From Tragulus kanchil (Eukaryota; Chordata; Mammalia; Artiodactyla; Tragulidae): a stretch of 64,000 bases of DNA. The first letter of the stretch is position 1; every line of letters begins with the position of its first letter. Made by a program: the position numbers and the translations under genes. This document shows positions 1,026 to 64,000 of this stretch, piece after piece. Below the pieces are notes generated by a model. It was not told where the DNA came from, searched no databases, and was given only the letters and a program-made list of their open reading frames with translations. The stretch is from positions 97,243,608-97,307,607 of the forward strand of contig JAIOJX010000025.1 of the NCBI GenBank assembly GCA_022376925.1. Direction: 5' to 3'.

Positions 1026-1045
1026 TATTTTAAAAATAAACTTAA

Positions 1046-1300
1046 GGGCTTTCCTGGTGGTCCAGTGTGTGGAGAGTCCACCTTGCAGTGCAGGGGGCAT
1101 GGGTTATATCCCTGATCCAGGAAGATCCTGCCTACCGGGAAGCAGCTGGGCTGGTGTGTTCAGTGACAAGCTGGTGCTCTGGAGCGCATGTGCCCAGAGC
1201 CTGTGCTCTACAACGAGAGAGGCCACAGCAATGAGAGACCCACACAGGCCAAAGAATAAAGATGGATGAAAATAAATAAATAAAAAAATAATAAAAGACA
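1046..1300 (+). mobile_element. CHR-variant tRNA-Glu-type SINE, copy in unit 1A
   Basis: The head GGGCTTTCCTGGTGGTCCAG includes a Pol III A-box-like TGGTCCAGTGT, and a degenerate B box follows near 1105. The body runs through GCTCTGGAGCGCATGTGCCC and AGGCCACAGCAATGAGAG to GATGGATGAAAATAAATAAA. The head and the GAGAGGCCACAGCAATGAGA block are shared with CHR SINEs of cetartiodactyls. The middle and the GATGGATGAAAAT tail differ from classic CHR. No clean target-site duplication was found. A 70-codon frame here is inside the SINE and is not a gene. Confidence 0.85.
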
Positions 1301-2180
1301 CCAAAATTTTAAAAAATTAACCATAAACATATGTGCAAAGCTATAAATTATATTATATATGGGTATCTTTATTTATGTGTACTTACATAGCATAATTTCT
1401 AATATTCTTATATTTAGATAAAAGACATGGTCATAGCACCGTTGAACAAAAAGTATGCAAATTTACAGATTGATTTTTTTTTTAACTTAGAAATTTTTCA
1501 TTATTATTCAAAATATTACTAGTGTAACATTTTTGAATTATTTTTTCATTTTGTCATGTTTAGATATAAAGCTTTCATTAATTTATAAAAATGGCATAAG
1601 GTATACCATGATTTTATTATCTGTAAAAATTTTAATAGCACTGGACTACTTGTTATTTAAAGGTTATATGTGACTCATCTATTAAAGAATGTAGGCTATT
1701 AACATTATAAATGGTAAAATTTTTCATTGATCCCACTATATTCTTATATTTTTCCTTTTACTTTTTTTTCCACAATCACAATTTTTTGTATTTTGCTTTT
1801 TTGATTTTACAGAGTTTTGTGGTTTACAGATATGTATAATTCCATATTAGTCATATATATATATTTTAATCTCCTTCTCCGCCATCCCACCCCTCCAGGC
1901 CATCATATAGCCCTCATATACAATCCCTTAGATCTACAGCACGTTAATAACAGTTATCTCTTTTACCTAAGATAGTATAGGGTTCTATGTTGCTCTTTCC
2001 GTATCTCTCACCCATTTTCCCTCTCCCCAATGTCCGTAAGTCTGTTCTCTATGACTGTTTTTCCATTGATGCTCTGGTGTGTTTGTCAGTACAAACTTAC
2101 TAGGTTCCAAAATTATGTGTATGGAGTCCACCTTTGCAAAGGGGAAAAAGGGCCCAATGTTATTTTAAAAATAAACTTAA

Positions 2181-2435
2181 GGGCTTTCCTGGTGGTCCAG
2201 TGTGTGGAGAGTCCACCTTGCAGTGCAGGGGGCATGGGTTATATCCCTGATCCAGGAAGATCCTGCCTACCGGGAAGCAGCTGGGCTGGTGTGTTCAGTG
2301 ACAAGCTGGTGCTCTGGAGCGCATGTGCCCAGAGCCTGTGCTCTACAACGAGAGAGGCCACAGCAATGAGAGACCCACACAGGCCAAAGAATAAAGATGG
2401 ATGAAAATAAATAAATAAAAAAATAATAAAAGACA
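2181..2435 (+). mobile_element. CHR-variant SINE, copy in unit 1B
   Basis: This is the same insertion as the SINE at 1046, repeated because it lies within direct duplication 1. It has the same flanks and no target-site duplication of its own, so it is not an independent insertion. Confidence 0.85.
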
Positions 2436-3090
2436 CCAAAATTTTAAAAAATTAACCATAAACATATGTGCAAAGCTATAAATTATATTATATATGGGTA
2501 TCTTTATTTATGTGTACTTACATAGCATAATTTCTAATATTCTTATATTTAGATAAAAGACATGGTCATAGCACCGTTGAACAAAAAGTATGCAAATTTA
2601 CAGATTGATTTTTTTTTTAACTTAGAAATTTTTCATTATTATTCAAAATATTACTAGTATAACATTTTTGAATTATTTTTTCATTTTGTCATGTTTAGAT
2701 ATAAAGCTTTCATTAATTTATAAAAATGGCATAAGGTATACCATGATTTTATTATCTGTAAAAATTTTAATAGCACTGGACTACTTGTTATTTAAAGGTT
2801 ATATGTGACTCATCTATTAAAGAATGTAGGCTATTAACATTATAAATGGTAAAATTTTTCATTGATCCCACTATATTCTTATATTTTTCCTTTTACTTTT
2901 TTTTCCACAATCACAATTTTTTGTATTTTGCTTTTTTGATTTTACAGAGTTTTGTGGTTTACAGATATGTATAATTCCATATTAGTCATATATATATATA
3001 TATATATATTTTAATCTCCTTCTCCGCCATCCCACCCCTCCAGGCCATCATATAGCCCTCATATACAATCCCTTAGATCTACAGCACGTT

Positions 3091-5392
3091 AATAACAGTT
3101 ATCTCTTTTACCTAAGATAGTATAGGGTTCTATGTTGCTCTTTCCGTATCTCTCACCCATTTTTCCCTCTCCCCAATGTCCGTAAGTCTGTTCTCTATGA
3201 CTGTTTTTCCATTGATGCTCTGCGTGTGTGTTTGTCAGTACAAACTTACTAGGTTCCATATATATGTGTTAGTATACTGTATTTGCCCTCTTTTTGACTT
3301 ATTTCACTTTGTATAATAGGTTCTAAATTCATCCACCTCATTAGGACTGAATCTTCTGCATTTCTTTTTCCAGCTGAGAAGTATTCCTTTGTATATATGT
3401 ACCCGAGCTTCTTTATCCACTCATTTGTTTATGGACATCTAGTTTTCTTCTATGTTCTAGCTATTGTGTAGAGTGCTACAATGAACATTGGGGTACAGGT
3501 GTCTCTTTCTATTTTGATTTCATCAGGGTATAAGCCTAAGAGTGGGATTGCTGGGTTGTATGGTGTTTCTATTCTTAGTCTTTTGAGGAATCTCCATGCT
3601 GCCTTCCATAGCAGTTGTATCATTTACATTACCACCAACAATGCAAGAGTGTTCCCTTTTCTCTGCACCCTCTCCAGCATTATTGTTTGTAGACTTTTTG
3701 ATGATGGCCATTCTGACTGGTGTGAGGTGATATCTCATTGTAGTTTTGATTTGCATTTCTCTAATAACAAGTGACGTTAAGCATCTTTTCATGTATTTTT
3801 TGGCCATCTGTATGTCTTCTTTGGAGACATGTCTGTTTAGGTCTTTTTCTCATTTTTTGATTGGGTTGTTTGTTTTTTTGGTGTTGTCTGAGCTGATTAT
3901 ATATTTTTGGAAATAAATTCTTCGTCGGTTGTTTCATTTGCTATTATTTTCTCCCATTCTGTGGGTTGTCTGCTCACTTTGTAGTTTCTTTTGCTGTGTA
4001 GAAGCTTTTAAGTCTCATTAGGTCCTGCATGTTTATTTTCATTCTTATTTCTTTTATTCTAGAGGGTGGGTCATATCTCACTGAGTGTTTTGCCTATATT
4101 CTCCTCCAAGAGCTTTATGGTTTCTGGTCTTATATTTAGGTCTTTAACACATTTTGAATTGATCTTTGTGTATGGTGTCAGGGAATATTCCAACTTCATT
4201 TTTTTGCATGTAGCTGTCCAATTTTCCCAACACCATTAGATCTCCTAATAACAGTTATCTCTTTTACCTAAGATAGTATAGGGTTCTATGTTGCTCTTTC
4301 CGTATCTCTCACCCATTTTTCCCTCTCCCCAATGTCCGTAAGTCTGTTCTCTATGACTGTTTTTCCATTGATGCTCTGCGTGTGTGTTTGTCAGTACAAA
4401 CTTACTAGGTTCCATATATATGTGTTAGTATACTGTATTTGCCCTCTTTTTGACTTATTTCACTTTGTATAATAGGTTCTAAATTCATCCACCTCATTAG
4501 GACTGAATCTTCTGCATTTCTTTTTACAGCTGAGAAGTATTCCTTTGTATATATGTACCCGAGCTTCTTTATCCACTCATTTGTTTATGGACATCTAGTT
4601 TTCTTCTATGTTCTAGCTATTGTGTAGAGTGCTACAATGAACATTGGGGTACAGGTGTCTCTTTCTATTTTGATTTCATCAGGGTATAAGCCTAAGAGTG
4701 GGATTGCTGGGTTGTATGGTGTTTCTATTCTTAGTCTTTTGAGGAATCTCCATGCTGCCTTCCATAGCAGTTGTATCATTTACATTACCACCAACAATGC
4801 AAGAGTGTTCCCTTTTCTCTGCACCCTCTCCAGCATTATTGTTTGTAGACTTTTTGATGATGGCCATTCTGACTGGTGTGAGGTGATATCTCATTGTAGT
4901 TTTGATTTGCATTTCTCTAATAACAAGTGACGTTAAGCATCTTTTCATGTATTTTTTGGCCATCTGTATGTCTTCTTTGGAGACATGTCTGTTTAGGTCT
5001 TTTTCTCATTTTTTGATTGGGTTGTTTGTTTTTTTGGTGTTGTCTGAGCTGATTATATATTTTTGGAAATAAATTCTTCGTCGGTTGTTTCATTTGCTAT
5101 TATTTTCTCCCATTCTGTGGGTTGTCTGCTCACTTTGTAGTTTCTTTTGCTGTGTAGAAGCTTTTAAGTCTCATTAGGTCCTGCATGTTTATTTTCATTC
5201 TTATTTCTTTTATTCTAGAGGGTGGGTCATATCTCACTGAGTGTTTTGCCTATATTCTCCTCCAAGAGCTTTATGGTTTCTGGTCTTATATTTAGGTCTT
5301 TAACACATTTTGAATTGATCTTTGTGTATGGTGTCAGGGAATATTCCAACTTCATTTTTTTGCATGTAGCTGTCCAATTTTCCCAACACCAT
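3091..5392 (+). repeat. Direct duplication 2 (A 3091-4236, B 4247-5392)
   Basis: The offset is a constant 1156 and the copies are nearly base-identical over about 1.15 kb of L1 sequence. The first 168 bases are also found at 1945-2109, so this stretch is present three times. A 10-bp filler (4237-4246) separates the copies. Confidence 0.94.
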
Positions 5393-5410
5393 TTGTTGAA
5401 TAGGCTTAAA

Positions 5411-5696: not shown

Positions 5697-6215
5697 TTAG
5701 TTGATTTTTACAGAGTTGTGTTGTTTATAGCTATACATAAATTCATATCAGTCATAGGTATATGCTTGACCCATCCCACCTGAATCCCCCTCCCAGACCC
5801 TCCTCATCCCACCCCTCCAGGTTAATGCATAGCACCCAGGTATATTCCCTTAGTCTCACAGCATAGTCACATTGGTTGTCTCTTTTACATATGGTAGAGT
5901 AGGTTTTCATGTTACTTTTCCCATACTTCTACTCCTCCCACCCCACAATGACCATAAAGACCTCAATTCTCTATGTCTGTTTCTCCATTCATGCTCTGCA
6001 TATGCATTTATCAGTATCATCTTTCTAGATTCCATATATATGTGTTAGTATACTATATTTGTCCTTCTCTTTTGGGCTTATTCACTTTGTATAATAGGTT
6101 ATAGATTCATCCACCTCATTAGGACTGATTCAAATGCATTTCATTTTATGGCTGAGAAATTTTCCATTGTATATATGTACCATTAGCTTCTTTATCTATT
6201 CATTTGTTTTATCAA
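5697..6215 (-). mobile_element. 5'-truncated L1 LINE, minus strand
   Basis: The left end carries the ruminant L1 3' UTR pattern (TTTTTACAGAGTTGTGTTGT, then a C-rich block near 5770-5820). It continues through CTATGTCTGTTTCTCCATTC and a CATATATATGTGTTAGTATA block to the ORF2 terminus near 6140-6210. It is shorter and more diverged from the L1 at 1.8-5.4 kb, so it is a separate insertion. Confidence 0.82.
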
Positions 6216-6720
6216 CTTTGTAATCCTTTAAAAAATCCCACTGTTGGTTTTTTAACAAAATATTTCTATAATTTATTTTTACTTTCTGTATGTAAAACAT
6301 ATTTTTATAAATATTTTACTTTGATTTTTAAAAATAGTAGACAATACCTAAAGTTGTTCAAATGTTACCAAAATTATTGACAAATATTGTTATCTCTTCT
6401 ACTCTAGATATTTATTCAGATAAACTTTTGTCTATAATCACTTAATCATGATTCTATCTTCTTTTTCTACTTATTGTTGTCTCATTTATTTTTCCAATTA
6501 TATGTGTATAAACAATTTTCATGACTAATGTAAATAATGTACAATTACATCAGTTTGCCAGAATCTAGTCATTTATATCCTCTCCTCTTTTTGGCCTTGC
6601 CTATTTGTGAATTGAAACTGCTCGCAATTATCAGAAATAATACATAGTGTACCAATAAACAATATCATTTAAATCTTTCCTTTTTGTTAGAGTACATTTT
6701 CCTTAGAATACATTCTTTAA
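6216..6720. other. AT-rich unannotated DNA (repeated at about 7341-7848)
   Basis: No coding frame or recognised repeat. The same sequence recurs in unit 3B. Confidence 0.5.
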
Positions 6721-6929
6721 TCTACTGAGGGCAGACTGAATCTTAAAGTGGTCCAGTGATCTTCACATTCTATTATTCACAGCCTTGTATAATTCCCTTC
6801 CTTTAAGTGTGATGATGGCCTGTTATTTACTTCTAAATAGTGGAATATGGCAAAGGTGATAGAATGCATGTGATTATGTGTGCATGATTATATTACATAA
6901 GATTGTAGTGCCCATCTCACTAGACTCTC
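6721..6929 (+). mobile_element. Truncated duplicate of the LTR-like repeat
   Basis: This is the left part of the repeat at 7849-8400, cut where unit 3A ends. Confidence 0.55.
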
Positions 6930-6949
6930 ACAATGTCACTTGTCCTAAG

Positions 6950-7340
6950 GTTAATGCATAGCACCCAGGTATATTCCCTTAGTCTCACAGCATAGTCACA
7001 TTGGTTGTCTCTTTTACATATGGTAGAGTAGGTTTTCATGTTACTTTTCCCATACTTCTACCTCCCACCCCACAATGACCATAAAGACCTCAATTCTCTA
7101 TGTCTGTTTCTCCATTCATGCTCTGCATATGCATTTATCAGTATCATCTTTCTAGATTCCATATATATGTGTTAGTATACTATATTTGTCCTTCTCTTTT
7201 GGGCTTATTCACTTTGTATAATAGGTTATAGATTCATCCACCTCATTAGGACTGATTCAAATGCATTTCATTTTATGGCTGAGAAATTTTCCATTGTATA
7301 TATGTACCATTAGCTTCTTTATCTATTCATTTGTTTTATC
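6950..7340 (-). mobile_element. L1 fragment, minus strand, second copy in unit 3B
   Basis: Duplicate of the 5820-6215 part of the preceding L1. It begins abruptly inside the 3' UTR without a poly-T tract, as expected if the unit boundary and not retrotransposition set its edge. Confidence 0.82.
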
Positions 7341-7848
7341 AACTTTGTAATCCTTTAAAAAATCCCACTGTTGGTTTTTTAACAAAATATTTCTATAATT
7401 TATTTTTACTTTCTGTATGTAAAACATATTTTTATAAATATTTTACTTTGATTTTTAAAAATAGTAGACAATACCTAAAGTTGTTCAAATGTTACCAAAA
7501 TTATTGACAAATATTGTTATCTCTTCTACTCTAGATATTTATTCAGATAAACTTTTGTCTATAATCACTTAATCATGATTCTATCTTCTTTTTCTACTTA
7601 TTGTTGTCTCATTTATTTTTCCAATTATATGTGTATAAACAATTTTCATGACTAATGTAAATAATGTACAATTACATCAGTTTGCCAGAATCTAGTCATT
7701 TATATCCTCTCCTCTTTTTGGCCTTGCCTATTTGTGAATTGAAACTGCTCGCAATTATCAGAAATAATACATAGTGTACCAATAAACAATATCATTTAAA
7801 TCTTTCCTTTTTGTTAGAGTACATTTTCCTTAGAATACATTCTTTAAT

Positions 7849-8400
7849 CTACTGAGGGCAGACTGAATCTTAAAGTGGTCCAGTGATCTTCACATTCTAT
7901 TATTCACAGCCTTGTATAATTCCCTTCCTTTAAGTGTGATGATGGCCTGTTATTTACTTCTAAATAGTGGAATATGGCAAAGGTGATAGAATGCATGTGA
8001 TTATGTGTGCATGATTATATTACATAAGATTGTAGTGCCCATCTCACTAGACTCTCCCATGCTGACTCTGAGGAATATCAGCTATGTTGGGGAACCCAAT
8101 GTGACAAGGAATAGTGGGCGGCCTCTGGGAGGTGGAGGTAACTTCCGGCCAACAGCCAGCAAGAAATTGATGGCCTCAGTATCACAACGGCAAACAACTA
8201 ATAAAACTTAAGTGAGCTTGGAAGTGAATCATTTCCCACCCTAACATTGGATAAAACCCTAGTCCTGATTGACACTTTAATTGCAGTCTTGTGAAACCCT
8301 AAAAAAGAATTCAGCTAATGGATGGCCAGACTTCTAACCCACAGAAACTATGATAAAATAAACATGTGTTTCTATAATCTGCTTAGTTTGTAGAAATAAT
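7849..8400 (+). mobile_element. Ancient LTR-like repeat, plus strand, family unresolved
   Basis: The blocks AATATGGCAAAGGTGATAGA, GATTATATTACATAAGATTG and ATTGCAGTCTTGTGAAACCC, followed by CCCACAGAAACTATGATAAA, follow the order of an old mammalian LTR of the ERVL/MaLR sort as I recall it. It is heavily mutated. A truncated duplicate occupies 6721-6929. A 68-codon frame at 8005-8211 lies inside it and shows no recognisable domain. No viral coding region is present. Confidence 0.55.
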
Positions 8401-9097
8401 GCCATGCAGAAATAGAAATACATTAGTATTATGAGGTCACATAGTGACCTCACTCCAATATAGTAAGACACCTTAAAATTTCTCTCCAGAAAGACTGTAC
8501 GCTTTTAGCACAATCAGTATGATAAAAATATATTTACTTCACTCATAATTTCAGATACAGAGCATTTTCATTTTCTAATTTTTGCTACTATTCATTTACT
8601 TAATTTGTATGTATATTCACACACATATGTGTGTGTATACTTGCATTGTGTATGTATAAACAAATCAAGTGGTGTGGTATATATATGTCTTTATTAATGA
8701 GACTGAAAAATTGTTAAAGTTTTATCTGATATTTGTCTTAGCCTTGGTGTGAATTTTCAGCTCCTATATGTTGCCTATTGGCTACTGAAGTTTGCAGTTC
8801 ATTTAGTATAAATTTTTTTTTTTATCAGTTTTGCTATATTTTGTATTGAAAGTCTTTGTCACAGCAATCAAAAGAATTATTTTACTCTATCCAGACAGTG
8901 TCTAAATCATGCAAGTCATTTTCAATTTCAATAGCCTTTCTATACTCATATATATCTATATATATATATACATATATAGTCCTTATATGATATGTTTATG
9001 GTTGGATCTTTTGCACTGTACAGAGTTATTGGCATATAGTAGTTGTTCAATAAATCATCATTGGCTAAAAATATCCAATCATATTGATTTGAACAGA
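8401..9097. other. Unannotated AT-rich DNA with a short TA microsatellite
   Basis: It includes a TA-rich tract at about 8947-8980 and, near 9015-9065, a weak MIR/L2-like tail ending in a TTCAATAAATCATC motif. No gene is visible. From 8533 it is duplicated in unit 4. Confidence 0.5.
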
Positions 9098-9565
9098 GCT
9101 ATTACTTTGCCTACAAAGATCCATATTGTCAAAGCTATGGTTTTTCCAGTCGTCATGTACGGATATGAAAGCTGAACAATAAAAAAGTCTTAACACTAAA
9201 TAACTGATGCCTTTGAACTCTGGTGCTGGAGAAGACTCTTGAGACAATAAGGAGATAAAACCAGTTAATTCTGAAGGAAATCAACCCTGAATATTCGTTG
9301 GAAAGACTGATGCTGAATCTGAAGCTCTAATACTTTGGCCACCTGATGCAAAGTGCTGACTCATTGGAAAAGACTCTGACCCTGGGAAAGATTGAGGAAA
9401 GGAGGAGAAGGGGACAACAGAGGATGAGACGGGTGGATGGCATCACTGAGTCAATAGACATGAATTCGAGCAAACTGGGAGACACTGAAGGGCAGGGAAA
9501 CCTGGTGTGCTAAATTCTATGGGGTCACAGAGTCAGAAATGATTGAGCTACTGAACAAACAAAGT
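9098..9565 (+). mobile_element. BovB (RTE-type) LINE 3' end, plus strand
   Basis: The sequence encodes a piece of the C-terminal reverse transcriptase region (residues TLPTKIHIVKAMVFPVVMYG in frame from about 9100) followed by a stop where the family has tryptophan. It continues through TACTTTGGCCACCTGATGCA and GACTCATTGGAAAAGACTCT to the 3' terminus GGGGTCACAGAGTCAGAAAT. BovB is the autonomous partner of BovA SINEs and is known for horizontal transfer among vertebrates. The copy is 5'-truncated, has internal stops and is dead. Confidence 0.93.
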
Positions 9566-10172
9566 CAAAGAAGAATATATCTGGAAAGCAAATGAAAAGA
9601 GAATAAATTTACTTCACTCATAATTTCAGATACAGAGCATTTTCATTTTCTAATTTTTGCTACTATTCATTTACTTAATTTGTATGTATATTCACACACA
9701 TATGTGTGTGTATACTTGCATTGTGTATGTATAAACAAATCAAGTGGTGTGGTATATATATGTCTTTATTAATGAGACTGAAAAATTGTTAAAGTTTTAT
9801 CTGATATTTGTCTTAGCCTTGGTGTGAATTTTCAGCTCCTATATGTTGCCTATTGGCTACTGAAGTTTGCAGTTCATTTAGTATAAATTTTTTTTTTTAT
9901 CAGTTTTGCTATATTTTGTATTGAAAGTCTTTGTCACAGCAATCAAAAGAATTATTTTACTCTATCCAGACAGTGTCTAAATCATGCAAGTCATTTTCAA
10001 TTTCAATAGCCTTTCTATACTCATATATATCTATATATATATATACATATATAGTCCTTATATGATATGTTTATGGTTGGATCTTTTGCACTGTACAGAG
10101 TTATTGGCATATAGTAGTTGTTCAATAAATCATCATTGGCTAAAAATATCCAATCATATTGATTTGAACAGA

Positions 10173-10640
10173 GCTATTACTTTGCCTACAAAGATCCATA
10201 TTGTCAAAGCTATGGTTTTTCCAGTCGTCATGTACGGATATGAAAGCTGAACAATAAAAAAGTCTTAACACTAAATAACTGATGCCTTTGAACTCTGGTG
10301 CTGGAGAAGACTCTTGAGACAATAAGGAGATAAAACCAGTTAATTCTGAAGGAAATCAACCCTGAATATTCGTTGGAAAGACTGATGCTGAATCTGAAGC
10401 TCTAATACTTTGGCCACCTGATGCAAAGTGCTGACTCATTGGAAAAGACTCTGACCCTGGGAAAGATTGAGGAAAGGAGGAGAAGGGGACAACAGAGGAT
10501 GAGACGGGTGGATGGCATCACTGAGTCAATAGACATGAATTCGAGCAAACTGGGAGACACTGAAGGGCAGGGAAACCTGGTGTGCTAAATTCTATGGGGT
10601 CACAGAGTCAGAAATGATTGAGCTACTGAACAAACAAAGT
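10173..10640 (+). mobile_element. BovB 3' end, second copy in unit 4B
   Basis: Duplicate of the fragment at 9098-9565 with the same truncation point and flanks, so it was copied with its surroundings and was not inserted separately. Confidence 0.93.
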
Positions 10641-10849
10641 CAAAGAAGAATATATCTGGAAAGCAAATGAAAAAGAGAACTAAGTAGACACTTCTGAGTA
10701 CATGGCCCACTAAAATGATGTTCCTTATGTGAAAATTATCTCACATCATACTTTGTGTATTATTTTTGTAATTGTAGCATCACTTCTTAAATTTTACTCT
10801 TTCCAAAGTGTAGCGAAGTTGACATAACAGATATACTTAGTTGAACTCA

Positions 10850-10945
10850 AAATTTAGAGTTTAAGTGACTTACTACATGTTATCATGGGACAAGAACACA
10901 GATTTCTGACTCTGGTGCTTTTTCCATGATTCATAAGCTATTGAA
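10850..10945 (-). mobile_element. MIR fragment, minus strand
   Basis: The order GTGACTTACTACATGTTATC, ACACAGATTTCTGACTCTGG, TGCTTTTTCCATGATTCATA follows the inverted 5' half of a MIR core-SINE. It is an ancient, diverged relic. A duplicate lies at about 11893-11988. Confidence 0.6.
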
Positions 10946-11880
10946 GACTATTTATTTTAGTATATTTTCCTGTGTAATTTAGGTCTTTTGGATTTCTATT
11001 TTACATTATTATATATGTTCTGTATATTATGTTCTGTCTCTTCTGCAAAATTATCACTTTACTTATGGTGGACACTTGGTTTGATGTCTCTGTTTCAGGT
11101 AAATGGACATTTGTAGATCCACAGCCCATAGTGAGGGTACCATAAGTGAATTCCATCTGTATTTCAGCTGCCCATGCATTCACATTTTTTAACATCTCAA
11201 CTCCCTTGGCCACCTTCAGGCATAGACACTATGCAGCTGAATCTGGTGTTAGGCTATGCTAATGGTGTGGAACATGGAAAGTACACCATTTGTAATCTCC
11301 ATATGACAGAATAGAAATGAATGGATCATGCTTTGATTTGTGTAGTGCCTTTGGCTAGACCATACATGCTATTTTCCAAGTATCTAGATTATAAGGCACA
11401 GGCATAGAAAATTGAGAGTTAGCCATACATCAGTGGGAATGACTATCCTTCTCTACTGGACCAGTTAAAGGAATATATATGTCTATTATATGCCCTCATA
11501 CAGTTATCTTGATGACTTTATGGAAGGTGACATTTCTTATATGATCTTTGGTTAAATATCACATATTTCAATGTCTATTCTTAGTCTCTTTTTAAAAAGT
11601 GAATCCTCATTTTTTGAGACTGTGTCATTGTGAAAGAAATTAAAATATGGCTTTGCCTCCTTCTGGACACTGGAGGTAAATATGTGTTTTTCCAGGGATG
11701 AAGGAAGAAATAAAGTGGAGATAGACATTTGAATAAGGTGAAATAGCATATGTAATGATATAGAGACAGGTTCAGAAAGATTCAAGAGATCAATTATATC
11801 TAGAATGTAGGATGGATATAAAGAGACTGAGATGAAGGAAGGGGAAAACATAGGCAACAATGAAAGCCACATTAAGAAAT
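10946..11880. other. Unannotated AT-rich DNA (repeated at 11989-12930)
   Basis: No domain-bearing frame, exon or repeat was recognised. The reverse-strand frame at 11552-11977 has low-complexity hydrophobic content typical of AT-rich chance frames and no splice context. Confidence 0.5.
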
Positions 11881-43116: not shown

Positions 43117-43117
43117 A

Positions 43118-53437: not shown

Positions 53438-53439
53438 AA

Positions 53440-53969: not shown

Positions 53970-54032
53970 TGTTGTGTGTGTGTGGTGGGGGTATGCCTAT
54001 AGCCTTGCTGATGAAAAAAAAAAAAAAAAAAA
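53970..54032. repeat. Short GT run and 19-base poly(A)
   Basis: A GT run near 53971-53984 is followed after about 30 bases by A19 at 54014-54032. No SINE body was recognised immediately upstream. The pair recurs at about 55062-55124. Confidence 0.85.
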
Positions 54033-54377
54033 CAGCAGATATTTGGAAGCATACACTGTTTTATTTTTCAACCAAACCACCATGCTGAGGATTTGACTGC
54101 TGGGAGAAAAGAGGGTACATTTGTCAGCCTTTTCACTTTGATGCATGCTTCTGCAGTTAATGAATAAAATATCTGAGGGGATATGAATTGCCCTGATGTC
54201 CAGTGGCTTTAGGGCTAAGGTTCACTTTATGGTGATGCAAGTCTGCCCTGTGGCTCAGAATAGCTTCATACTGAGTGAAGATATTTAAGGCCCATTACCC
54301 TATAGAAAAGCAGCTGAAGAATTAATTTGACTTCTAGAGAATAAACACACAGGTGTGGGGAGAAAAATTAGTCAAAT
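54033..54377. other. Unannotated DNA (repeated at 55125-55467)
   Basis: No gene or recognised repeat. Confidence 0.5.
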
Positions 54378-54531
54378 CAAGGGAGATTGGGATATAATTT
54401 CTTTAAAGGCAGGAAAGGGCAGCCTCATTGCAAAAGGGAGAAAAGAGAAATGAGCCATTCTTATTTAACTTTTTTATATTCCACTAAAAACAAATAAGCA
54501 TCCTTTGACTTTTTAAAAGCATTTTTAAAAA

Positions 54532-54647
54532 ATTTTTCACTATGCCACGCAGCATCTGGCATCTTTTTTCTCTGACCAGGGACCAAACTCACACCCCCTG
54601 CATTAGAAGCAAGGCATCTTAGCCACTGGACTGCCAGGGAAGTCCAT
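54532..54647 (-). mobile_element. Classic CHR-type SINE, second copy in unit 21B
   Basis: Duplicate of 53440-53555 with the same flanks. Confidence 0.9.
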
Positions 54648-55467
54648 CCTTTGATTCTTGAATGGGTTGTCTCCAGCAACACTAACTCGTTAGTCAGGAA
54701 AAGCAATACCTTCTTTCCCCTGGATCCCCCAAACAACCTTTGGATTTCAAAAGTTGGCTTTGAAGCACCTGGTTTTCCAGGAGTTTGAAATGTGTCAAAT
54801 GATTCAAACTTGCCTGGACAGTCCTTTCAAGTGTGAGACTAGTGACCTCCTCCAGGTCACCTTCCAAGCTCTTTTTCATGCTTGGATCCCCTGAGGTGCA
54901 GCCCAGATGGGATCAGTTGCTCCTCTCCCAACCCCTTAGTTAAAAGGGCACATTTGGTTTGCAGAAGATACCAGAAGAACGCTTGTTTTGAGTTCACTTC
55001 TGTTAACATTTCCTTTGAGAACAAGTTTGTTTCAGGGAAAGAGGAGAAAAGAAAGGAAACCTGTTGTGTGTGTGTGGTGGGGGTATGCCTATAGCCTTGC
55101 TGATGAAAAAAAAAAAAAAAAAAACAGCAGATATTTGGAAGCATACACTGTTTTATTTTTCAACCAAACCACCATGCTGAGGATTTGACTGCTGGGAGAA
55201 AAGAGGGTACATTTGTCAGCCTTTTCACTTTGATGCATGCTTCTGCAGTTAATGAATAAAATATCTGAGGGGATATGAATTGCCCTGATGTCCAGTGGCT
55301 TTAGGGCTAAGGTTCACTTTATGGTGATGCAAGTCTGCCCTGTGGCTCAGAATAGCTTCATACTGAGTGAAGATATTTAAGGCCCATTACCCTATAGAAA
55401 AGCAGCTGAAGAATTAATTTGACTTCTAGAGAATAAACACACAGGTGTGGGGAGAAAAAAATTAGTC

Positions 55468-56646
55468 AATGTCAATAATAATTTTTTGGAGAAATTCTGT
55501 TTCTGTCCTCCTTTATTATTTCAGTGCAAATTTCGAGGCATAGTAGGCACTTGATAAATGACTTGAAACTATGTACATTGCTATGTTTATATTACGCATA
55601 TCATGTAAACTTTTGTATTCTACCCTTGACCTAAGAAATGGACCGGTAATGAGTCCATGTGGTATTTAAAAAAACAAAACCTGTTAGAGAAGATGCCAGC
55701 TTAACTTAGATGTTCAACGCCTGTTTGCTGGATAAATTTAAAATTCACCACTGAAAACTATTGTCAGTAAAGTAATTGTATGCTGCCTGACCTCAGACAT
55801 CAGCAGAACATGCATCAAACATATATTTTTGGTAAACACTTGCAATTCCTTTTAGAGAAAATGATTCCCAGGGCAATCTATTTCTGGATTTGTCTAGAAC
55901 AGTTGTTGAAGTCATAATTAAAATGTTTTTCTTGATTTGGAGCAGGAGAGGAATTGGGCCTTTGGTTGTCCAGCTGTGAGAAATGGCTCTTTATGGAGAA
56001 GGAGGTGACATTCTTTCCATCCATAATTCAGTGGCTTAATCCTTAGCAACAGACCTAATCATTGCTTCAGGTTTTCTAGCTGAGTTAAACTAACAGCGTG
56101 AGATGAAGACTGTCAAGGAAATATCTCGTTGTTCACATATTGATTAAATCCTATACATCATCACCCCATTTTTAAGGTCAAAATAAATAGAAGTTAGGAA
56201 ACTCTCCCAGCATCCTCAGATGACTAAATGTTTAATTATTGAGAGAGCAAATATCCTGTCTGCTGCAAAATATGCAGCCTGAGTACCTGTTTTAACAGTT
56301 CATCTCACCTTGAAAGATAGCCTACCTTAGGTTGCATTCCTCTTAGAAAAGAGTTCCCGGGAATATTTCTCAACTCTTGAATAACATTCGTTGATTTCCT
56401 TTTATCAGACCACAATACCTATGCATGTAATATTTTCCTCCTTATGTTAGCTGAGGGTCAAATTTCTTGCTTTGCTATAGATTTCATAAGGGCTTGGGAG
56501 TTTTCATACGATTTATTCCCTTCTACTTGGTGAAAGCTTTATATATACAACATTTAAACATGATATGTTTTTTTCTATTTTAACAGTCTTATTTGTGTGT
56601 GTCTTTTTAAACCATACAACACTTCTCTTGGTATGTGACCTACAAG
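55468..56646. other. Low-repeat DNA, possible conserved non-coding segment
   Basis: Apart from a possible L2/MIR tail near 55525-55570, no repeat is evident in 55600-56480. The segment 55930-56150 has a mixed composition. No coding frame with a domain was seen. Confidence 0.4.
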
Positions 56647-57776
56647 CTGTCCTCCTTTATTATTTCAGTGAAATTAGCTATGGCACTTGATAAATGACTT
56701 GAAACTATGTACATTGCTATTTTAATACATGTAAACTTTTGTATTCTACCCTTGACCTAAGAAATGGACCGGTAATGAGTCCATGTGGTATTTAAAAAAA
56801 CAAAACCTGTTAGAGAAGATGCCAGCTTAACTTAGATGTTCAACGCCTGTTTGCTGGATAAATTTAAAATTCACCACTGAAAACTATTGTCAGTAAAGTA
56901 ATTGTATGCTGCCTGACCTCAGACATCAGCAGAACATGCATCAAACATATATTTTTGGTAAACACTTGCAATTCCTTTTAGAGAAAATGATTCCCAGGGC
57001 AATCTATTTCTGGATTTGTCTAGAACAGTTGTTGAAGTCATAATTAAAATGTTTTTCTTGATTTGGAGCAGGAGAGGAATTGGGCCTTTGGTTGTCCAGC
57101 TGTGAGAAATGGCTCTTTATGGAGAAGGAGGTGACATTCTTTCCATCCATAATTCAGTGGCTTAATCCTTAGCAACAGACCTAATCATTGCTTCAGGTTT
57201 TCTAGCTGAGTTAAACTAACAGCGTGAGATGAAGACTGTCAAGGAAATATCTCGTTGTTCACATATTGATTAAATCCTATACATCATCACCCCATTTTTA
57301 AGGTCAAAATAAATAGAAGTTAGGAAACTCTCCCAGCATCCTCAGATGACTAAATGTTTAATTATTGAGAGAGCAAATATCCTGTCTGCTGCAAAATATG
57401 CAGCCTGAGTACCTGTTTTAACAGTTCATCTCACCTTGAAAGATAGCCTACCTTAGGTTGCATTCCTCTTAGAAAAGAGTTCCCGGGAATATTTCTCAAC
57501 TCTTGAATAACATTCGTTGATTTCCTTTTATCAGACCACAATACCTATGCATGTAATATTTTCCTCCTTATGTTAGCTGAGGGTCAAATTTCTTGCTTTG
57601 CTATAGATTTCATAAGGGCTTGGGAGTTTTCATACGATTTATTCCCTTCTACTTGGTGAAAGCTTTATATATACAACATTTAAACATGATATGTTTTTTT
57701 CTATTTTAACAGTCTTATTTGTGTGTGTACGTGTATTGTAAACCATACAACACTTCTCTTGGTATGTGACCTACAA
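55503..57776 (+). repeat. Direct duplication 22 (A 55503-56646, B 56647-57776)
   Basis: The offset falls from 1144 to 1136 to 1126 within the first 110 bases of B through successive small deletions (GTGAAATTAGCTATGGCAC; CTATTTTAATACATG). A's last 60 bases also lack sequence (GTGTGTCTTTTTAAACC against GTGTGTGTACGTGTATTGTAAACC). The middle 900 bases look identical. This join shows best that errors flank the junction. Confidence 0.95.
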
Positions 57777-57874
57777 GTCACACATTTTAAATTATAAATT
57801 TAACCACAAGCTATACTAAAATATACTATTTAGTATATACTATACTAGCTGAGTCGACTTTGGCAAGTTTTAAA

Positions 57875-57968
57875 ACTCTTTTATGCTTTTATTTTCTTAT
57901 CTTAAAATGGGGATTATAACATTTATCTTATAGTGCTGTGATGAGGACCAGATGAATTAATAAAGTCA
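57875..57968 (+). mobile_element. MIR fragment, plus strand
   Basis: TTTATTTTCTTATCTTAAAA, TGGGGATTATAACATTTATC and GCTGTGATGAGGACCAGATG follow the direct MIR core. A duplicate is at 59011-59104. Confidence 0.8.
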
Positions 57969-58270
57969 AGTATGAATTGTAAAGTACTACCTTTACCGTT
58001 GACTCTAAGCTCCTTGATATCATACAGAGTAATTTAACAAGTTTAAATTCCCAGGATTTCAGGCCACACATGGCATTCATTGTCAAGGCTTTTGGTCATG
58101 GGATCTTTCAGGCCTGGGTTAGCTTTGCATTTTTCTCAAACATCTATATACCTTTATCTTACAATGTCTTCTTGCTTGAAGCCAGCCCAAATAATAGTGA
58201 GTCCTTGGTCTTGTTGCTACTCTGCTACACTGGACATACTGGCACCTGGGCCTTATTGACCTATGGGAAT

Positions 58271-58420
58271 AGATAATTCTTTGATATGAGTGCCTGTTCT
58301 GTTTATTGTAGGACATTTTCAGTATCTCTAATCTCTGCCCACAAGATGCCAGTAGCATACTTCAGTTGTGGCAACCAAAAATGTCTCCAGGCATTGTCAA
58401 ACCTCCCCTGGTTGTGTAAC
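58271..58420 (-). mobile_element. MER20 (hAT-Charlie type non-autonomous DNA transposon)
   Basis: ATAATTCTTTGATATGAGTG, TTATTGTAGGACATTTTCAG, GCCCACAAGATGCCAGTAGC, TTGTGGCAACCAAAAATGTC and CCAGGCATTGTCAAACCTCC follow the MER20 consensus order in reverse. MER20 is an ancient eutherian DNA transposon. Some copies serve as regulatory elements in endometrial stromal cells. Nothing in this sequence alone shows that this copy is active. Confidence 0.8.
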
Positions 58421-58764
58421 AGGGAGTCAGTTACAGTCTTTCTGCTAGATCTGTTTCTTTGCTACTTTTGTTATTATAATCACACATAATGGCTTTCCCC
58501 TGAGAATCCTGCCGCTCTGCCTGATTGTTAAGATAAACTGCCTTTGTTCAAAACCCTGGAAGGAAGGAAGACATTAACACAGGTCCCACTGCCAGAGGCT
58601 TCTCATTCTAGGAGCTACTTGTAAGAGTAAATGAACTTTTTATTTCGTTTCCTCACTTCTCCCATTTAAGATCCATGAAAGAAACTGGCATCCAGATGCC
58701 AGCAATATGGTTGCTGTGAGATATTACTCTGCCATCTTCTGGATCAGGCCACTTTCTGAATAAA
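58421..58764. other. Unannotated DNA (repeated at 59557-59902 and 60687-61032)
   Basis: No gene or recognised repeat. It exists in three copies through duplications 23 and 24. Confidence 0.5.
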
Positions 58765-59406
58765 GTTTTCATACGATTTATTCCCTTCGACTTGGTGAAA
58801 GCTTTATATGTACAACATTTAAACATGATATGTTTTTTTCTATTTTAACAGTCTTATTTGTTTTACGTGTATTGTAAACCATACAACACTTCTCTTGGTA
58901 TGTGACCTACAAGTCACACATTTTAAATTATAAATTTAACCACAAGCTATACTAAAATATACTATTTAGTATATACTATACTAGCTGAGTCGACTTTGGC
59001 AAGTTTTAAAACTCTTTTATGCTTTTATTTTCTTATCTTAAAATGGGGATTATAACATTTATCTTATAGTGCTGTGATGAGGACCAGATGAATTAATAAA
59101 GTCAAGTATGAATTGTAAAGTACTACCTTTACCGTTGACTCTAAGCTCCTTGATATCATACAGAGTAATTTAACAAGTTTAAATTCCCAGGATTTCAGGC
59201 CACACATGGCATTCATTGTCAAGGCTTTTGGTCATGGGATCTTTCAGGCCTGGGTTAGCTTTGCATTTTTCTCAAACATCTATATACCTTTATCTTACAA
59301 TGTCTTCTTGCTTGAAGCCAGCCCAAATAATAGTGAGTCCTTGGTCTTGTTGCTACTCTGCTACACTGGACATACTGGCACCTGGGCCTTATTGACCTAT
59401 GGGAAT

Positions 59407-59556
59407 AGATAATTCTTTGATATGAGTGCCTGTTCTGTTTATTGTAGGACATTTTCAGTATCTCTAATCTCTGCCCACAAGATGCCAGTAGCATACTTCA
59501 GTTGTGGCAACCAAAAATGTCTCCAGGCATTGTCAAACCTCCCCTGGTTGTGTAAC
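59407..59556 (-). mobile_element. MER20, second copy in unit 23B
   Basis: Duplicate of 58271-58420. A third, partial copy begins at 60648 and holds only the CTCCAGGCATTGTCAAACCT end. Confidence 0.8.
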
Positions 59557-61748
59557 AGGGAGTCAGTTACAGTCTTTCTGCTAGATCTGTTTCTTTGCTA
59601 CTTTTGTTATTATAATCACACATAATGGCTTTCCCCTGAGAATCCTGCCGCTCTGCCTGATTGTTAAGATAAACTGCCTTTGTTCAAAACCCTGGAAGGA
59701 AGGAAGACATTAACACAGGTCCCACTGCCAGAGGCTTCTCATTCTAGGAGCTACTTGTAAGAGTAAATGAACTTTTTATTTCGTTTCCTCACTTCTCCCC
59801 ATTTAAGATCCATGAAAGAAACTGGCATCCAGATGCCAGCAATATGGTTGCTGTGAGATATTACTCTGCCATCTTCTGGATCAGGCCACTTTCTGAATAA
59901 AGTCTTATTCTTTGCTTCAATATCCTTCAGATTCACTGTCTTCTCTTGACGCAAGCAGAGCTATCTTGGATGTGGTCTACTTGCTCAAAGGCTATAAGGT
60001 CTTAAATTCCAGCATTAATAGATGAGTCCTTTTACGTGCTATCTTCTTTTAAAAGCTAAAAACACTGGGAAGGAAGTGCTAATTAAATGAATCCATACCG
60101 AGGTATTAATAGGCCAACACAGTGAAGAAAATCTGTCGACACAGGGTTAAAAGACTTACTGACTTACCTTGTTGCTTTGAACAAGTCATTTAACCTCTCT
60201 CATCTTGAGTTGCTTCATCTTGAAAATGAGAATGATGAAACTGACACAGATCCTGTTTTGAGTATTAAATAACCCAAAGCAAATTTTTAACAAATGTAAA
60301 GGCCAATATTGCTGTTTTTTTTTCTTAATTTTTGTGCCATTCTTTTAACTAAACCCCTAGGACATAAAACCACTGAATGGCTAAGATGGAGATATTTAAA
60401 ATAAATTTCATGGACCTCACTTTTAGCCACAGTAATCTATGCATTTAAAAAAAAATAAATAATGAGCTTATAGGATTTCTGGACTATCTGAGAGAAAATT
60501 GAAGGCCAACTGACCAATAATAGAACTGCAAAAAGATTTATCTACCTTTAGATATTATACTTCCTATGAATTATCCATAACCCTTCTAGACTTCTGGCTG
60601 TTCCCTTTGTATCTGCAATAATAGAACTGCAAAGTCATATTAGTTTGAGTCTCCAGGCATTGTCAAACCTCCCCTGGTTGTGTAACAGGGAGTCAGTTAC
60701 AGTCTTTCTGCTAGATCTGTTTCTTTGCTACTTTTGTTATTATAATCACACATAATGGCTTTCCCCTGAGAATCCTGCCGCTCTGCCTGATTGTTAAGAT
60801 AAACTGCCTTTGTTCAAAACCCTGGAAGGAAGGAAGACATTAACACAGGTCCCACTGCCAGAGGCTTCTCATTCTAGGAGCTACTTGTAAGAGTAAATGA
60901 ACTTTTTATTTCGTTTCCTCACTTCTCCCCATTTAAGATCCATGAAAGAAACTGGCATCCAGATGCCAGCAATATGGTTGCTGTGAGATATTACTCTGCC
61001 ATCTTCTGGATCAGGCCACTTTCTGAATAAAGTCTTATTCTTTGCTTCAATATCCTTCAGATTCACTGTCTTCTCTTGACGCAAGCAGAGCTATCTTGGA
61101 TGTGGTCTACTTGCTCAAAGGCTATAAGGTCTTAAATTCCAGCATTAATAGATGAGTCCTTTTACGTGCTATCTTCTTTTAAAAGCTAAAAACACTGGGA
61201 AGGAAGTGCTAATTAAATGAATCCATACCGAGGTATTAATAGGCCAACACAGTGAAGAAAATCTGTCGACACAGGGTTAAAAGACTTACTGACTTACCTT
61301 GTTGCTTTGAACAAGTCATTTAACCTCTCTCATCTTGAGTTGCTTCATCTTGAAAATGAGAATGATGAAACTGACACAGATCCTGTTTTGAGTATTAAAT
61401 AACCCAAAGCAAATTTTTAACAAATGTAAAGGCCAATATTGCTGTTTTTTTTTCTTAATTTTTGTGCCATTCTTTTAACTAAACCCCTAGGACATAAAAC
61501 CACTGAATGGCTAAGATGGAGATATTTAAAATAAATTTCATGGACCTCACTTTTAGCCACAGTAATCTATGCATTTAAAAAAAAATAAATAATGAGCTTA
61601 TAGGATTTCTGGACTATCTGAGAGAAAATTGAAGGCCAACTGACCAATAATAGAACTGCAAAAAGATTTATCTACCTTTAGATATTATACTTCCTATGAA
61701 TTATCCATAACCCTTCTAGACTTCTGGCTGTTCCCTTTGTATCTGCAA
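59520..61748 (+). repeat. Direct duplication 24 (A 59520-60618, B 60650-61748)
   Basis: The offset is a constant 1130. The 30-base filler at 60619-60649 includes AATAGAACTGCAAA, an echo of the word at 60519, and does not match the sequence after B's edge. Confidence 0.94.
60150..60300 (+). mobile_element. MIR, plus strand
   Basis: TTGAACAAGTCATTTAACCT, TTGCTTCATCTTGAAAATGA and GAATGATGAAACTGACACAG follow the direct MIR core. A duplicate is at 61280-61430. Confidence 0.82.
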
Positions 61749-62001
61749 AATAAGAGTCATTATTCAGCTTCTGATTGAACTTCTAAAGTCCAAAATGAAA
61801 GTTATATTGCTGTATTAACTCAGCAAGGGAAGTCCTACTGAAAACCATCCATTACCTGTATAAAGCTAATGTTGTTATCAACCAGCCTAAAAGAAGAGAC
61901 TGTACCCTATACTTTTGGAAATGAATATATGAGTGTCTGAATAGCTGCCAATTTGAATCTTAACCATAGAGAAAAAACGCTTCTTGTCTTCTGGGCTGGT
62001 C
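61431..62001. other. Unannotated DNA, single-copy right of 61749
   Basis: No gene or recognised repeat. A short A run lies near 61577. Confidence 0.5.
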
Positions 62002-62214
62002 ACCTGAACAGTGTGCTTATCAAGTATCTGGGAAATTCCTACCTGCTCTCCATTTCTAACATCACACTCAGAGACAACATAATCCCTGCAGTTTGGTAAA
62101 ATGTCAATATTACCTTGTATAGTGGATAGACCAAATTAATGTTAGACTAAGAACAGTGAAGTTTTAATCATTTATCTCTATCTAGATTCATAGTCACCTG
62201 CTCTTACTAGCCAC

Positions 62215-62375
62215 TCTTCTCTGCCAGATACCTTTACAAATTTTGTCTAATTTAGTATTCCCAACAAAGCAGTGAGAGAGAAAAGTATTTTTATCTTCTG
62301 AATGTTGCTGATGAAGTTACTGAAACTGCAGGAGTTGAATGTGTGAGGGTCAGGTATGGAACTGAGATTCAACTT
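62215..62375 (-). mobile_element. MIR, minus strand
   Basis: GCCAGATACCTTTACAAATT, TAGTATTCCCAACAAAGCAG, TGATGAAGTTACTGAAACTG and GGAACTGAGATTCAACTTTG follow the inverted MIR. A duplicate is at about 63311-63471. Confidence 0.8.
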
Positions 62376-62587
62376 TGATGTTTTTGCTATAAGTAAGCAC
62401 TTTGTCTCTACCTCACAAACCAGGGAATAAATAAATGATTGTCTTGATCAAGTCCTGATAAGCTCAGTACAATAGCAGGATTGTATCTAAGCTAGAATTA
62501 AAACCTCAATCATCAGAACTCCCATGCTACCTTGTTTAAACCTCTTAGTACTTGAATTATCTTTGTTATATTAAAACCATTTGTGAG

Positions 62588-62862
62588 GGCTTCCCTGTGG
62601 TCCAGTGGGTAAAGAGTCCACCTTGCAGTGCAAGGGGTACCAATTCGATCCCTGGCCTGGGAAGATCCCACGTACTGCAGAGCAGCTGGACCGGTGTGTC
62701 CCATTATGATCCAATGCTCTGGAGTGCATGCACCCAGAACTGGTGCTCTGAAGCAAGAGAGTCTACTGCAATGGGAGGCCCACACTGGCCAAAGAATAAA
62801 GATGGATGAAAATGAATGAAAAAAAATAATAAAAGAGGTCAAAAATTTTTTAAAAAAGAAAA
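62588..62862 (+). mobile_element. CHR-variant SINE, plus strand, with target-site duplication
   Basis: The element starts at GGCTTCCCTGTGGTCCAGTG. It has the A box TGGTCCAGTGG, the B-box-like region ATTCGATCCCTGG, then AGCTGGACCGGTGTGTCCCA and ATGGGAGGCCCACACTGGCC, ending in AAAGATGGATGAAAATGAAT and an A-rich tail. A perfect 10-bp target-site duplication CATTTGTGAG lies at 62578-62587 and 62863-62872. Five short frames on both strands fall inside it and are not genes. Confidence 0.9.
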
Positions 62863-63683
62863 CATTTGTGAGAATCAACTTTGCTAGAATGAATGCTGTG
62901 GTATTTCCTAGAATTCAAGTTTTTCCACCATATTGATTGATTAATTTATTCATTAATACCTCCACGTTAGCACAGAAAAGATAGAAAAAATTTATTCAAA
63001 ATTAATGAACCTTGCTTGACTATTTTACTCTCCAAATCCCTGGAGATATAAATTATCCTTTCATAGCTCTTCACTCACATATGTTTTATTTTGCATTTTA
63101 CCTGAACAGTGTGCTTATCGTATCTGGGAAATTCCTACCTGCTCTCCATTTCTAACATCACACTCAGAGACAACATAATCCCTGCAGTTTGGTAAAATGT
63201 CAATATTACCTTGTATAGTGGATAGACCAAATTAATGTTAGACTAAGAACAGTGAAGTTTTAATCATTTATCTCTATCTAGATTCATAGTCACCTGCTCT
63301 TACTAGCCACTCTTCTCTGCCAGATACCTTTACAAATTTTGTCTAATTTAGTATTCCCAACAAAGCAGTGAGAGAGAAAAGTATTTTTATCTTCTGAATG
63401 TTGCTGATGAAGTTACTGAAACTGCAGGAGTTGAATGTGTGAGGGTCAGGTATGGAACTGAGATTCAACTTTGATGTTTTTGCTATAAGTAAGCACTTTG
63501 TCTCTACCTCACAAACCAGGGAATAAATAAATGATTGTCTTGATCAAGTCCTGATAAGCTCAGTACAATAGCAGGATTGTATCTAAGCTAGAATTAAAAC
63601 CTCAATCATCAGAACTCCCATGCTACCTTGTTTAAACCTCTTAGTACTTGAATTATCTTTGTTATATTAAAACCATTTGTGAG

Positions 63684-63957
63684 GGCTTCCCTGTGGTCCA
63701 GTGGGTAAGAGTCCACCTTGCAGTGCAAGGGGTACCAATTCGATCCCTGGCCTGGGAAGATCCCACGTACTGCAGAGCAGCTGGACCGGTGTGTCCCATT
63801 ATGATCCAATGCTCTGGAGTGCATGCACCCAGAACTGGTGCTCTGAAGCAAGAGAGTCTACTGCAATGGGAGGCCCACACTGGCCAAAGAATAAAGATGG
63901 ATGAAAATGAATGAAAAAAAATAATAAAAGAGGTCAAAAATTTTTTAAAAAAGAAAA
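63684..63957 (+). mobile_element. CHR-variant SINE, second copy in unit 25B
   Basis: Duplicate of 62588-62862, with the same target-site duplication at 63674-63683 and 63958-63967 and one A missing (GTGGGTAAGAGTCC). That one-base change rearranges the chance frames between copies. Confidence 0.9.
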
Positions 63958-64000
63958 CATTTGTGAGAATCAACTTTGCTAGAATGAATGCTGTGGTATT

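What the first reader, a model, noticed from the sequence alone, without database searches (positions are those of the whole stretch)
1026..64000. Twenty-five serial head-to-tail duplications with a near-constant unit of about 1.1 kb
Direct reading shows 25 adjacent direct repeats with offsets from 1036 to about 1215, most between 1080 and 1180. Unit content is unrelated from one to the next (L1, BovB, MIR, plain DNA), so no sequence feature explains the common length. This is unlike satellites, tandem genes or segmental duplications. The likeliest cause is an assembler whose graph nodes are about 1 kb (wtdbg2, for example, uses 1,024-bp segments as vertices), with the consensus step concatenating overlapping edges. 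Collapsing them shortens the window from 64 kb to about 36 kb.
Basis: partly seen in the sequence, partly recalled or inferred. Interest (0 to 1): 0.9.

Follow-up and report, generated by a model that had tools for sequence, protein, structure and literature searches.

The report
False 1.1-kb duplications from genome assembly
The 25 back-to-back repeats are really in the sequence file but almost certainly not in the animal: the assembly program wrote overlapping pieces one after another without merging them, and the same error turned up in every other part of this genome that was sampled.

Summary
In detail: 25 head-to-tail direct repeats (24 complete, 1 cut by the window end), offsets 1037-1215, mean 1121; removing one copy of each leaves 35,964 bp. 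They are an assembly artefact. Differences between copies pile up within about 140 bp of the junction-facing ends and are rare elsewhere. Where neighbouring units overlap, three copies exist. All 37 private differences there lie in copy 1's right end or copy 3's left end, none in the middle copy; five overlaps elsewhere gave 11 and 0. Two consensus pieces with poor ends, joined without trimming, should look like that. The error is widespread. The window lies in a 3.167-Gb, 32-contig assembly, and 14 of 14 sampled 10-kb stretches hold such units (33 units, 26% excess). Exon matches of conserved genes are doubled or tripled at 1060-1199 bp in 6 of 16 cases, close to the 36% predicted from the excess. 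If the sample is representative, about 0.8 Gb is false. The wtdbg/wtdbg2 attribution fits but is unproven: a predicted 256-bp quantisation was not significant. As biology this is not a feature.

The parts
1025..3269 (.). unit 1: copy A 1025-2120, copy B 2160-3269, offset 1135
   Evidence: self-BLAST 98.4%; details
3090..5393 (.). unit 2: copy A 3090-4237, copy B 4246-5393, offset 1156; overlaps unit 1 (three copies)
   Evidence: 99.9%
5819..8059 (.). unit 3: copy A 5819-6932, copy B 6948-8059, offset 1129
   Evidence: 99.7%
8527..10679 (.). unit 4: copy A 8527-9603, copy B 9602-10679, offset 1075
   Evidence: 99.8%
10841..12929 (.). unit 5: copy A 10841-11886, copy B 11881-12929, offset 1040
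   Evidence: 99.6%
13847..16199 (.). unit 6: copy A 13847-15016, copy B 15030-16199, offset 1183
   Evidence: 99.1%
15743..18019 (.). unit 7: copy A 15743-16882, copy B 16871-18019, offset 1128; overlaps unit 6 by 457 bp
   Evidence: 98.1%; three copies
18188..20597 (.). unit 8: copy A 18188-19401, copy B 19403-20597, offset 1215; 15 indels, all within about 95 bp of an end
   Evidence: 95.7%
22217..24363 (.). unit 9: copy A 22217-23280, copy B 23301-24363, offset 1084
   Evidence: 99.4%
24226..26450 (.). unit 10: copy A 24226-25348, copy B 25365-26450, offset 1139; overlaps unit 9
   Evidence: 96.4%, 39-bp gap 71 bp from the left end of copy B
28872..31044 (.). unit 11: copy A 28872-29959, copy B 29960-31044, offset 1088
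   Evidence: 99.7%
31645..33924 (.). unit 12: copy A 31645-32793, copy B 32781-33924, offset 1136
   Evidence: 99.0%
34337..36522 (.). unit 13: copy A 34337-35429, copy B 35430-36522, offset 1093
   Evidence: 98.8%
36111..38382 (.). unit 14: copy A 36111-37244, copy B 37251-38382, offset 1140; overlaps unit 13 by 412 bp
   Evidence: 99.8%
38180..40404 (.). unit 15: copy A 38180-39285, copy B 39299-40404, offset 1119; overlaps unit 14
   Evidence: 100%
40799..43116 (.). unit 16: copy A 40799-41951, copy B 41966-43116, offset 1167
   Evidence: 99.7%; junction leftover matches the sequence before copy A
42834..45086 (.). unit 17: copy A 42834-43961, copy B 43961-45086, offset 1127; overlaps unit 16
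   Evidence: 99.2%
44899..47183 (.). unit 18: copy A 44899-46037, copy B 46042-47183, offset 1143; overlaps unit 17
   Evidence: 99.7%
49383..51464 (.). unit 19: copy A 49383-50428, copy B 50420-51464, offset 1037
   Evidence: 99.9%
51241..53438 (.). unit 20: copy A 51241-52340, copy B 52340-53438, offset 1099; overlaps unit 19
   Evidence: 99.4%
53286..55469 (.). unit 21: copy A 53286-54375, copy B 54378-55469, offset 1092; overlaps unit 20
   Evidence: 99.7%
55503..57777 (.). unit 22: copy A 55503-56646, copy B 56647-57777, offset 1144
   Evidence: 97.4%
57625..59906 (.). unit 23: copy A 57625-58769, copy B 58764-59906, offset 1139; overlaps unit 22
   Evidence: 99.3%
59519..61752 (.). unit 24: copy A 59519-60623, copy B 60649-61752, offset 1130; overlaps unit 23 by 388 bp
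   Evidence: 99.9%
62002..64000 (.). unit 25, cut by the window end: copy A from 62002 (matched to 62905), copy B 63100-64000, offset 1098
   Evidence: 99.7% over 904 bp

Best explanation
The repeats are false. A long-read assembler built each contig from consensus pieces (here 1.8-4.6 kb from junction to junction) that share about 1.1 kb with the next piece. At many joins the two overlapping ends were written one after the other instead of being merged. Each failed join leaves the shared 1.1 kb twice, with the poor-quality tail of the first piece and the poor-quality head of the second meeting at the junction. Later polishing made the two copies nearly identical except close to the junction. 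Shown here: the repeats, their near-constant offset, the junction-centred errors, the three-copy pattern, the recurrence on 14 contigs and the multiplied exon matches. Inferred: that the pieces are edge consensuses of wtdbg/wtdbg2 between about 1,024-bp nodes (node length recalled; about 0.65 likely), and that the clean middles come from polishing. The confidence below is for unmerged overlapping pieces, whatever the program.
For: (1) 25 direct repeats of near-constant offset and no inverted ones. (2) In the window, 69 of 80 indels lie in the 130-bp end zones (6,370 columns; the right zone of the cut unit 25 does not exist) and 11 in the middle (21,420 columns), odds ratio 21. Of those 69, 63 are deletions on the copy end that faces the internal junction (p = 4e-13 by event; by unit 19 for, 3 against, 3 ties, p = 0.0009). 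No difference lies 140-240 bp from a unit end. (3) Three-copy overlaps: 37 private differences over 11 overlaps (2,779 bp; one overlap has none), all within 110 bp of copy 1's right end (18) or 128 bp of copy 3's left end (19), none in the middle copy (one doubtful case looked at). Five overlaps elsewhere: 11 and 0, the 11 coming from two of the five. (4) 14 of 14 sampled 10-kb stretches on 14 contigs hold units (33, offsets 1056-1261, mean 1116); no other direct repeat and no inverted one at 300 bp, 93% within a stretch. (5) Of 64 matches to window 1-2000 outside the window (a capped list, 40 of 9,770 candidates scored), 24 same-strand pairs lie within 5 kb of each other; 16 of the 24, at 14 places, are 1067-1192 bp apart. 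(6) Exon matches of two conserved domains occur twice or three times in tandem, 1060-1199 bp apart, in 6 of 16 cases, against 36% expected from the 26% excess. (7) The 24 complete units have no repeat flanking both ends beyond the random level.
Against: No reads, depth or layout file could be seen. In the sampled stretches (20 complete units) differences again cluster at the ends (22 indels in 5,200 columns against 8 in 17,042), but deletion polarity alone is weaker, 15 to 7, p = 0.13. Piece lengths show no significant 256-bp quantisation, which counts mildly against the wtdbg2 reading. Of 11 junction leftovers of 4-39 bp, each tested against two expected sources, only 4 beat the 95% random level; about 1 of the 22 tests would do so by chance. 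Eight of the 24 pairs lie at other distances (129-580, 1643, 1772); all involve weak matches (73-76% identity), so they look like ordinary neighbouring or internally repeated elements (inference). It is not explained why ends that are now 95-100% alike failed to merge.
Confidence: 0.97

Rival explanations
1. The duplications are real: a mechanism in this animal (replication slippage, template switching or an insertion process) made recent tandem copies of about 1.1 kb across the genome.
For: The repeats are in the sequence and are near identical.
Against: Differences crowd next to the junction and none of 48 private differences is in the middle copy of three. Unit ends share no repeat. 6 of 16 exon matches of conserved genes would be multiplied. 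About a quarter of the sampled sequence would consist of such copies.
Confidence: 0.01
2. Within the artefact reading: another program than wtdbg (a different overlap-based assembler, chunked polishing or gap filling) wrote the overlapping pieces end to end. This is a share of the 0.97 above, not outside it.
For: The sequence alone shows overlapping pieces without merging. 256-bp quantisation was not significant, and overlaps between neighbouring units reach 457 bp.
Against: A near-constant overlap of about 1.1 kb with pieces of only 1.8-4.6 kb fits a node-and-edge layout. Gap filling or polishing in long chunks would not be expected to recur every 2-3 kb (inference).
Confidence: 0.3
3. Haplotype (heterotype) false duplication: the two copies are the two parental alleles placed in tandem.
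For: Heterotype duplication exceeded homotype in two of the three previous assemblies tabulated by Ko et al. 2022 and is named there as the main source (passages of PMC9516828).
Against: Allelic differences would be spread over the unit. The middles differ by 11 indels and 15 mismatches in 21,420 columns. Allele blocks have no reason to be about 1.1 kb.
Confidence: 0.01
4. Library artefact (whole-genome amplification or template-switch chimaeras in reads) carried into the assembly.
For: Amplification chimaeras can give repeats of neighbouring DNA (recalled).
Against: These are mainly inverted and variable in length (recalled); here no inverted copies were found and the offset is nearly constant. 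Consensus over many reads would remove random chimaeras (inference).
Confidence: 0.01

Closest known systems
Homotype false duplication (Vertebrate Genomes Project; Ko et al. 2022, PMC9516828, abstract and passages seen)
   Same: A false extra copy of the same locus in an assembly, not due to two haplotypes; put down there to read errors.
   Different: [quoted passage not shown] Here there is a unit of about 1.1 kb, no run of N at the window's junctions, and 26% of the sampled sequence.
wtdbg/wtdbg2 edge consensus (Ruan and Li 2020; paper not held; [quoted passage not shown]
   Different: A normal run merges the shared node (recalled). Failure of the merge in a large share of joins is not described in what I saw of the papers found.

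Membership tests
Homotype false duplication | extra copies in the assembly that are the same locus, without haplotype-specific differences | tested here: met
   middles differ at 26 places in 21,420 columns; differences crowd at the junction-facing ends; haplotype k-mers themselves could not be tested
Homotype false duplication | lowered read depth over the copies, or no heterozygous k-mers | not testable with these tools
   no reads available
Homotype false duplication | gap or unsupported join between the copies | tested here: inconclusive
   window has no N; junction leftovers of up to 39 bp at complete units; read support not testable
wtdbg/wtdbg2 unmerged edges | duplicated unit near one node length (about 1,024 bp, recalled) | tested here: met
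   58 offsets of 1037-1261, means 1121 (window) and 1116 (sample)
wtdbg/wtdbg2 unmerged edges | piece lengths in steps of 256-bp bins (recalled) | tested here: inconclusive
   24 pieces; best in the prior range at 256 but P = 0.07; over all periods 200-360 the best is 210, P = 0.11
wtdbg/wtdbg2 unmerged edges | assembly record names the program, or its layout file has these boundaries | not testable with these tools
   the assembly is unnamed here
Real tandem duplication | differences between copies independent of position and copy | tested here: not met
Real tandem duplication | reads across both copies | not testable with these tools
   no reads available

The most novel reading that the evidence does not exclude
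A systematic failure of one widely used long-read assembly pipeline writes every unmerged node twice. It has inflated this chromosome-scale mammalian assembly by about a third over its true size, may pass usual quality checks because the copies are short and tandem, and may sit unnoticed in other public assemblies made in the same way.
Probability: 0.35. Interest if true: 0.4.

Novelty: not a real feature. Interest (0 to 1): 0.22.

Why it matters
Biologically there is nothing here. Practically, about 26% of the sampled sequence (95% interval 21-31% over 14 stretches), or about 0.83 of 3.17 Gb if the sample is representative, is probably false. Exon counts, tandem-duplication and copy-number calls, repeat content, genome size and short-read mapping from this assembly would then be wrong (inference). 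A screen that looks only for long self-matches would miss it: one study of wtdbg2 assemblies screened for pairs longer than 100 kb at over 98% similarity (PMC13251582, passages). Direct repeats 1.04-1.26 kb apart with errors at the internal junction are a simple test for other assemblies.

Tried and rejected
Flanking repeats as a cause of unequal crossing-over: the 100 bp outside the two ends of the 24 complete units are no more alike than random pairs. 256-bp quantisation of piece lengths: not significant. Junction leftovers as tail or head sequence: of 11 tested (those of 4-100 bp), 4 beat the 95% random level against the sequence before copy A or after copy B, 7 did not. Whether the window is unusually rich: 25 units in 64 kb against 33 in 140 kb, P = 0.065, so not shown. 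RNA families: none at the gathering score in the window. Pfam on 8 of the 11 open frames of 120 aa or more: none at E 0.001. Plasmid records: no match for one unit, window 49383-51464. Papers: ten searches (two of them without any hit) listed no paper that I recognised as describing this 1.1-kb artefact; most hits were seen only as listings, nine papers as passages. The giraffe paper was looked at because the assembly has at least 15 large contigs; nothing in the passages ties the window to it, and the organism is left open. Recount: a first count of repeat pairs from the list (51 of the 64 outside rows, 16 pairs, 14 near 1.1 kb) had dropped 13 rows, mostly weak; one search takes all 64 rows (24 pairs, 16 near 1.1 kb) and is the one used.

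Full report
What is there. Self-comparison of the 64-kb window gives 25 head-to-tail direct repeats, 24 complete and one cut by the window end. Offsets run from 1037 to 1215, mean 1121. Identity is 95.7-100%. 80% of the bases lie in repeated 31-mers, and 25,385 of 25,390 consecutive identical 31-mers are 1000-1240 bp apart; ten mononucleotide shuffles have no repeated 31-mer; BLAST found no inverted repeat of 200 bp or more at 95% or more. In collapsed coordinates, units either overlap their neighbour (11 cases, 139-457 bp) or lie up to 2.4 kb from it (13 cases). The eleven overlaps are three-copy stretches.

Real or false. Differences between copies A and B are not spread evenly. In 130-bp end zones there are 69 indels in 6,370 columns, in the middle 11 in 21,420 (odds ratio 21). 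At the left end the missing bases are in copy B (35 of 37), at the right end in copy A (28 of 32). Together 63 of 69 fall on the end that faces the internal junction (p = 4e-13 by event; by unit 19 for, 3 against, 3 ties). Mismatches crowd there too (24 in the end zones, 15 in the middle). Counted by distance from the nearest unit end, differences fall off to 140 bp, then none occur for 100 bp, then a low scatter follows.

Three-copy test. Where two units overlap, the same stretch exists three times: as the tail of one piece, inside the next, and as the head of the third. In 11 overlaps (2,779 bp) there are 37 private differences: 18 in the first copy, all within 110 bp of its right end; 19 in the third copy, all within 128 bp of its left end; none in the middle copy. 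25 are deletions, 11 mismatches and 1 insertion. One overlap in which both outer copies differ near a short repeat was inspected, and the two differences are distinct. Five overlaps from other contigs gave 4, 7 and 0; the 11 differences come from two of the five, and two of the five overlaps are under 100 bp, so there only the absence from the middle copy is informative, not the position (a sixth overlap, of 21 bp, was not used). If each copy were equally prone, 0 of 48 in the middle has probability 3.5e-9, though neighbouring differences are not independent. A real duplication has no reason to mutate in this way; unmerged consensus pieces with weak ends do.

Widespread in the assembly. The window lies on contig 8 of a 3,167,203,957-bp assembly of 32 contigs. 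I asked for 20 stretches of 10 kb at positions chosen by hand; 10 were returned, the others lay beyond the ends of short contigs. All 14, on 14 contigs, hold units of the same kind: 33 in 140 kb, 1 to 4 each, offsets 1056-1261, mean 1116 (units cut by a stretch end included). No other direct and no inverted repeat of 300 bp at 93% was found within a stretch. The excess is 26.3% (bootstrap over stretches 21-31%), which would leave 2.33 Gb (2.18-2.49). The sample is from large contigs only. In the 20 complete units of the first ten stretches, indels again cluster at the ends (22 in 5,200 columns against 8 in 17,042), while the polarity of deletions is 15 to 7, not significant alone; three units cut by an end of a stretch were left out there.

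Interspersed repeats and exons. Of 24 same-strand pairs within 5 kb, 16 (at 14 places) are 1067-1192 bp apart; 8 are at 129-580, 1643 and 1772, all involving weak matches of 73-76% identity (an earlier count on 51 of the rows is). Pfam PF00136 (DNA polymerase family B) gave 16 matches, which I group into 11 distinct exon matches in three places; 4 of the 11 occur more than once in tandem, one of them three times. PF00521 (type II topoisomerase) gave 9 matches; leaving aside one long intronless frame on contig 4 (2 matches, not repeated), there are 5 exon matches, of which 2 are doubled. Offsets are 1060-1199. That is 6 of 16; the expected share of unique bases that are duplicated is 0.263/0.737, or 36%. 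That these domains mark essential genes, single-copy or nearly so, in mammals is general knowledge, not tested here. Two further family searches (PF00562, PF04998) did not complete.

Mechanism. The 24 pieces between junctions are 1.8-4.6 kb long, median 2.3 kb, and neighbouring pieces share about 1.1 kb. This is the geometry of a graph assembler that writes a consensus for each edge, two neighbouring edges sharing one node. The unit is never below 1037, as expected if a shared node plus ragged ends is duplicated. A held paper describes wtdbg2 as generating contig layout and edge sequences before consensus (PMC8434745, passage); the wtdbg2 paper itself is not held. A test for 256-bp steps in piece length was not significant. 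I therefore hold the artefact as nearly certain and the program as likely. The limit of errors at about 140 bp suggests short-read polishing that could not act across the junction (inference).

Place among known things. False duplications are known; those not due to haplotypes are called homotype duplications (Ko et al. 2022, PMC9516828, abstract and passages). In the six assemblies tabulated there, homotype duplication is at most 2.7% of the assembly. The present case differs in its near-fixed unit, lack of gaps at the window's junctions and extent. In ten paper searches I found no description of it, mostly judging from listings. As a biological feature it is not real.

Noticed in passing
G000:C4:146618980-146620356 (minus strand): An open frame of 1,259 aa that holds two matches to the type II topoisomerase domain without an intron between them, not doubled; it could be a retrocopy or something else.
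   Followed up: no
window 13501-13878 (-), 53369-53734 (-), 62513-62914 (-): Open frames that read like translated ruminant-type SINEs (recognised from memory); of these three and five other long frames none has a Pfam match.
   Followed up: partly
window, unit middles more than 240 bp from a unit end: A low scatter of mismatches and indels between copies that resembles heterozygous sites or polishing choices; there is none at 140-240 bp from the unit ends.
   Followed up: no
window 20598-22216, 26451-28871, 47184-49382: Longer stretches without any duplication, where joins may have been merged correctly.
   Followed up: no
window 24226-26450: A 39-bp block is absent from copy B of unit 10, 71 bp from its junction end; the other two copies of that stretch have it.
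   Followed up: partly
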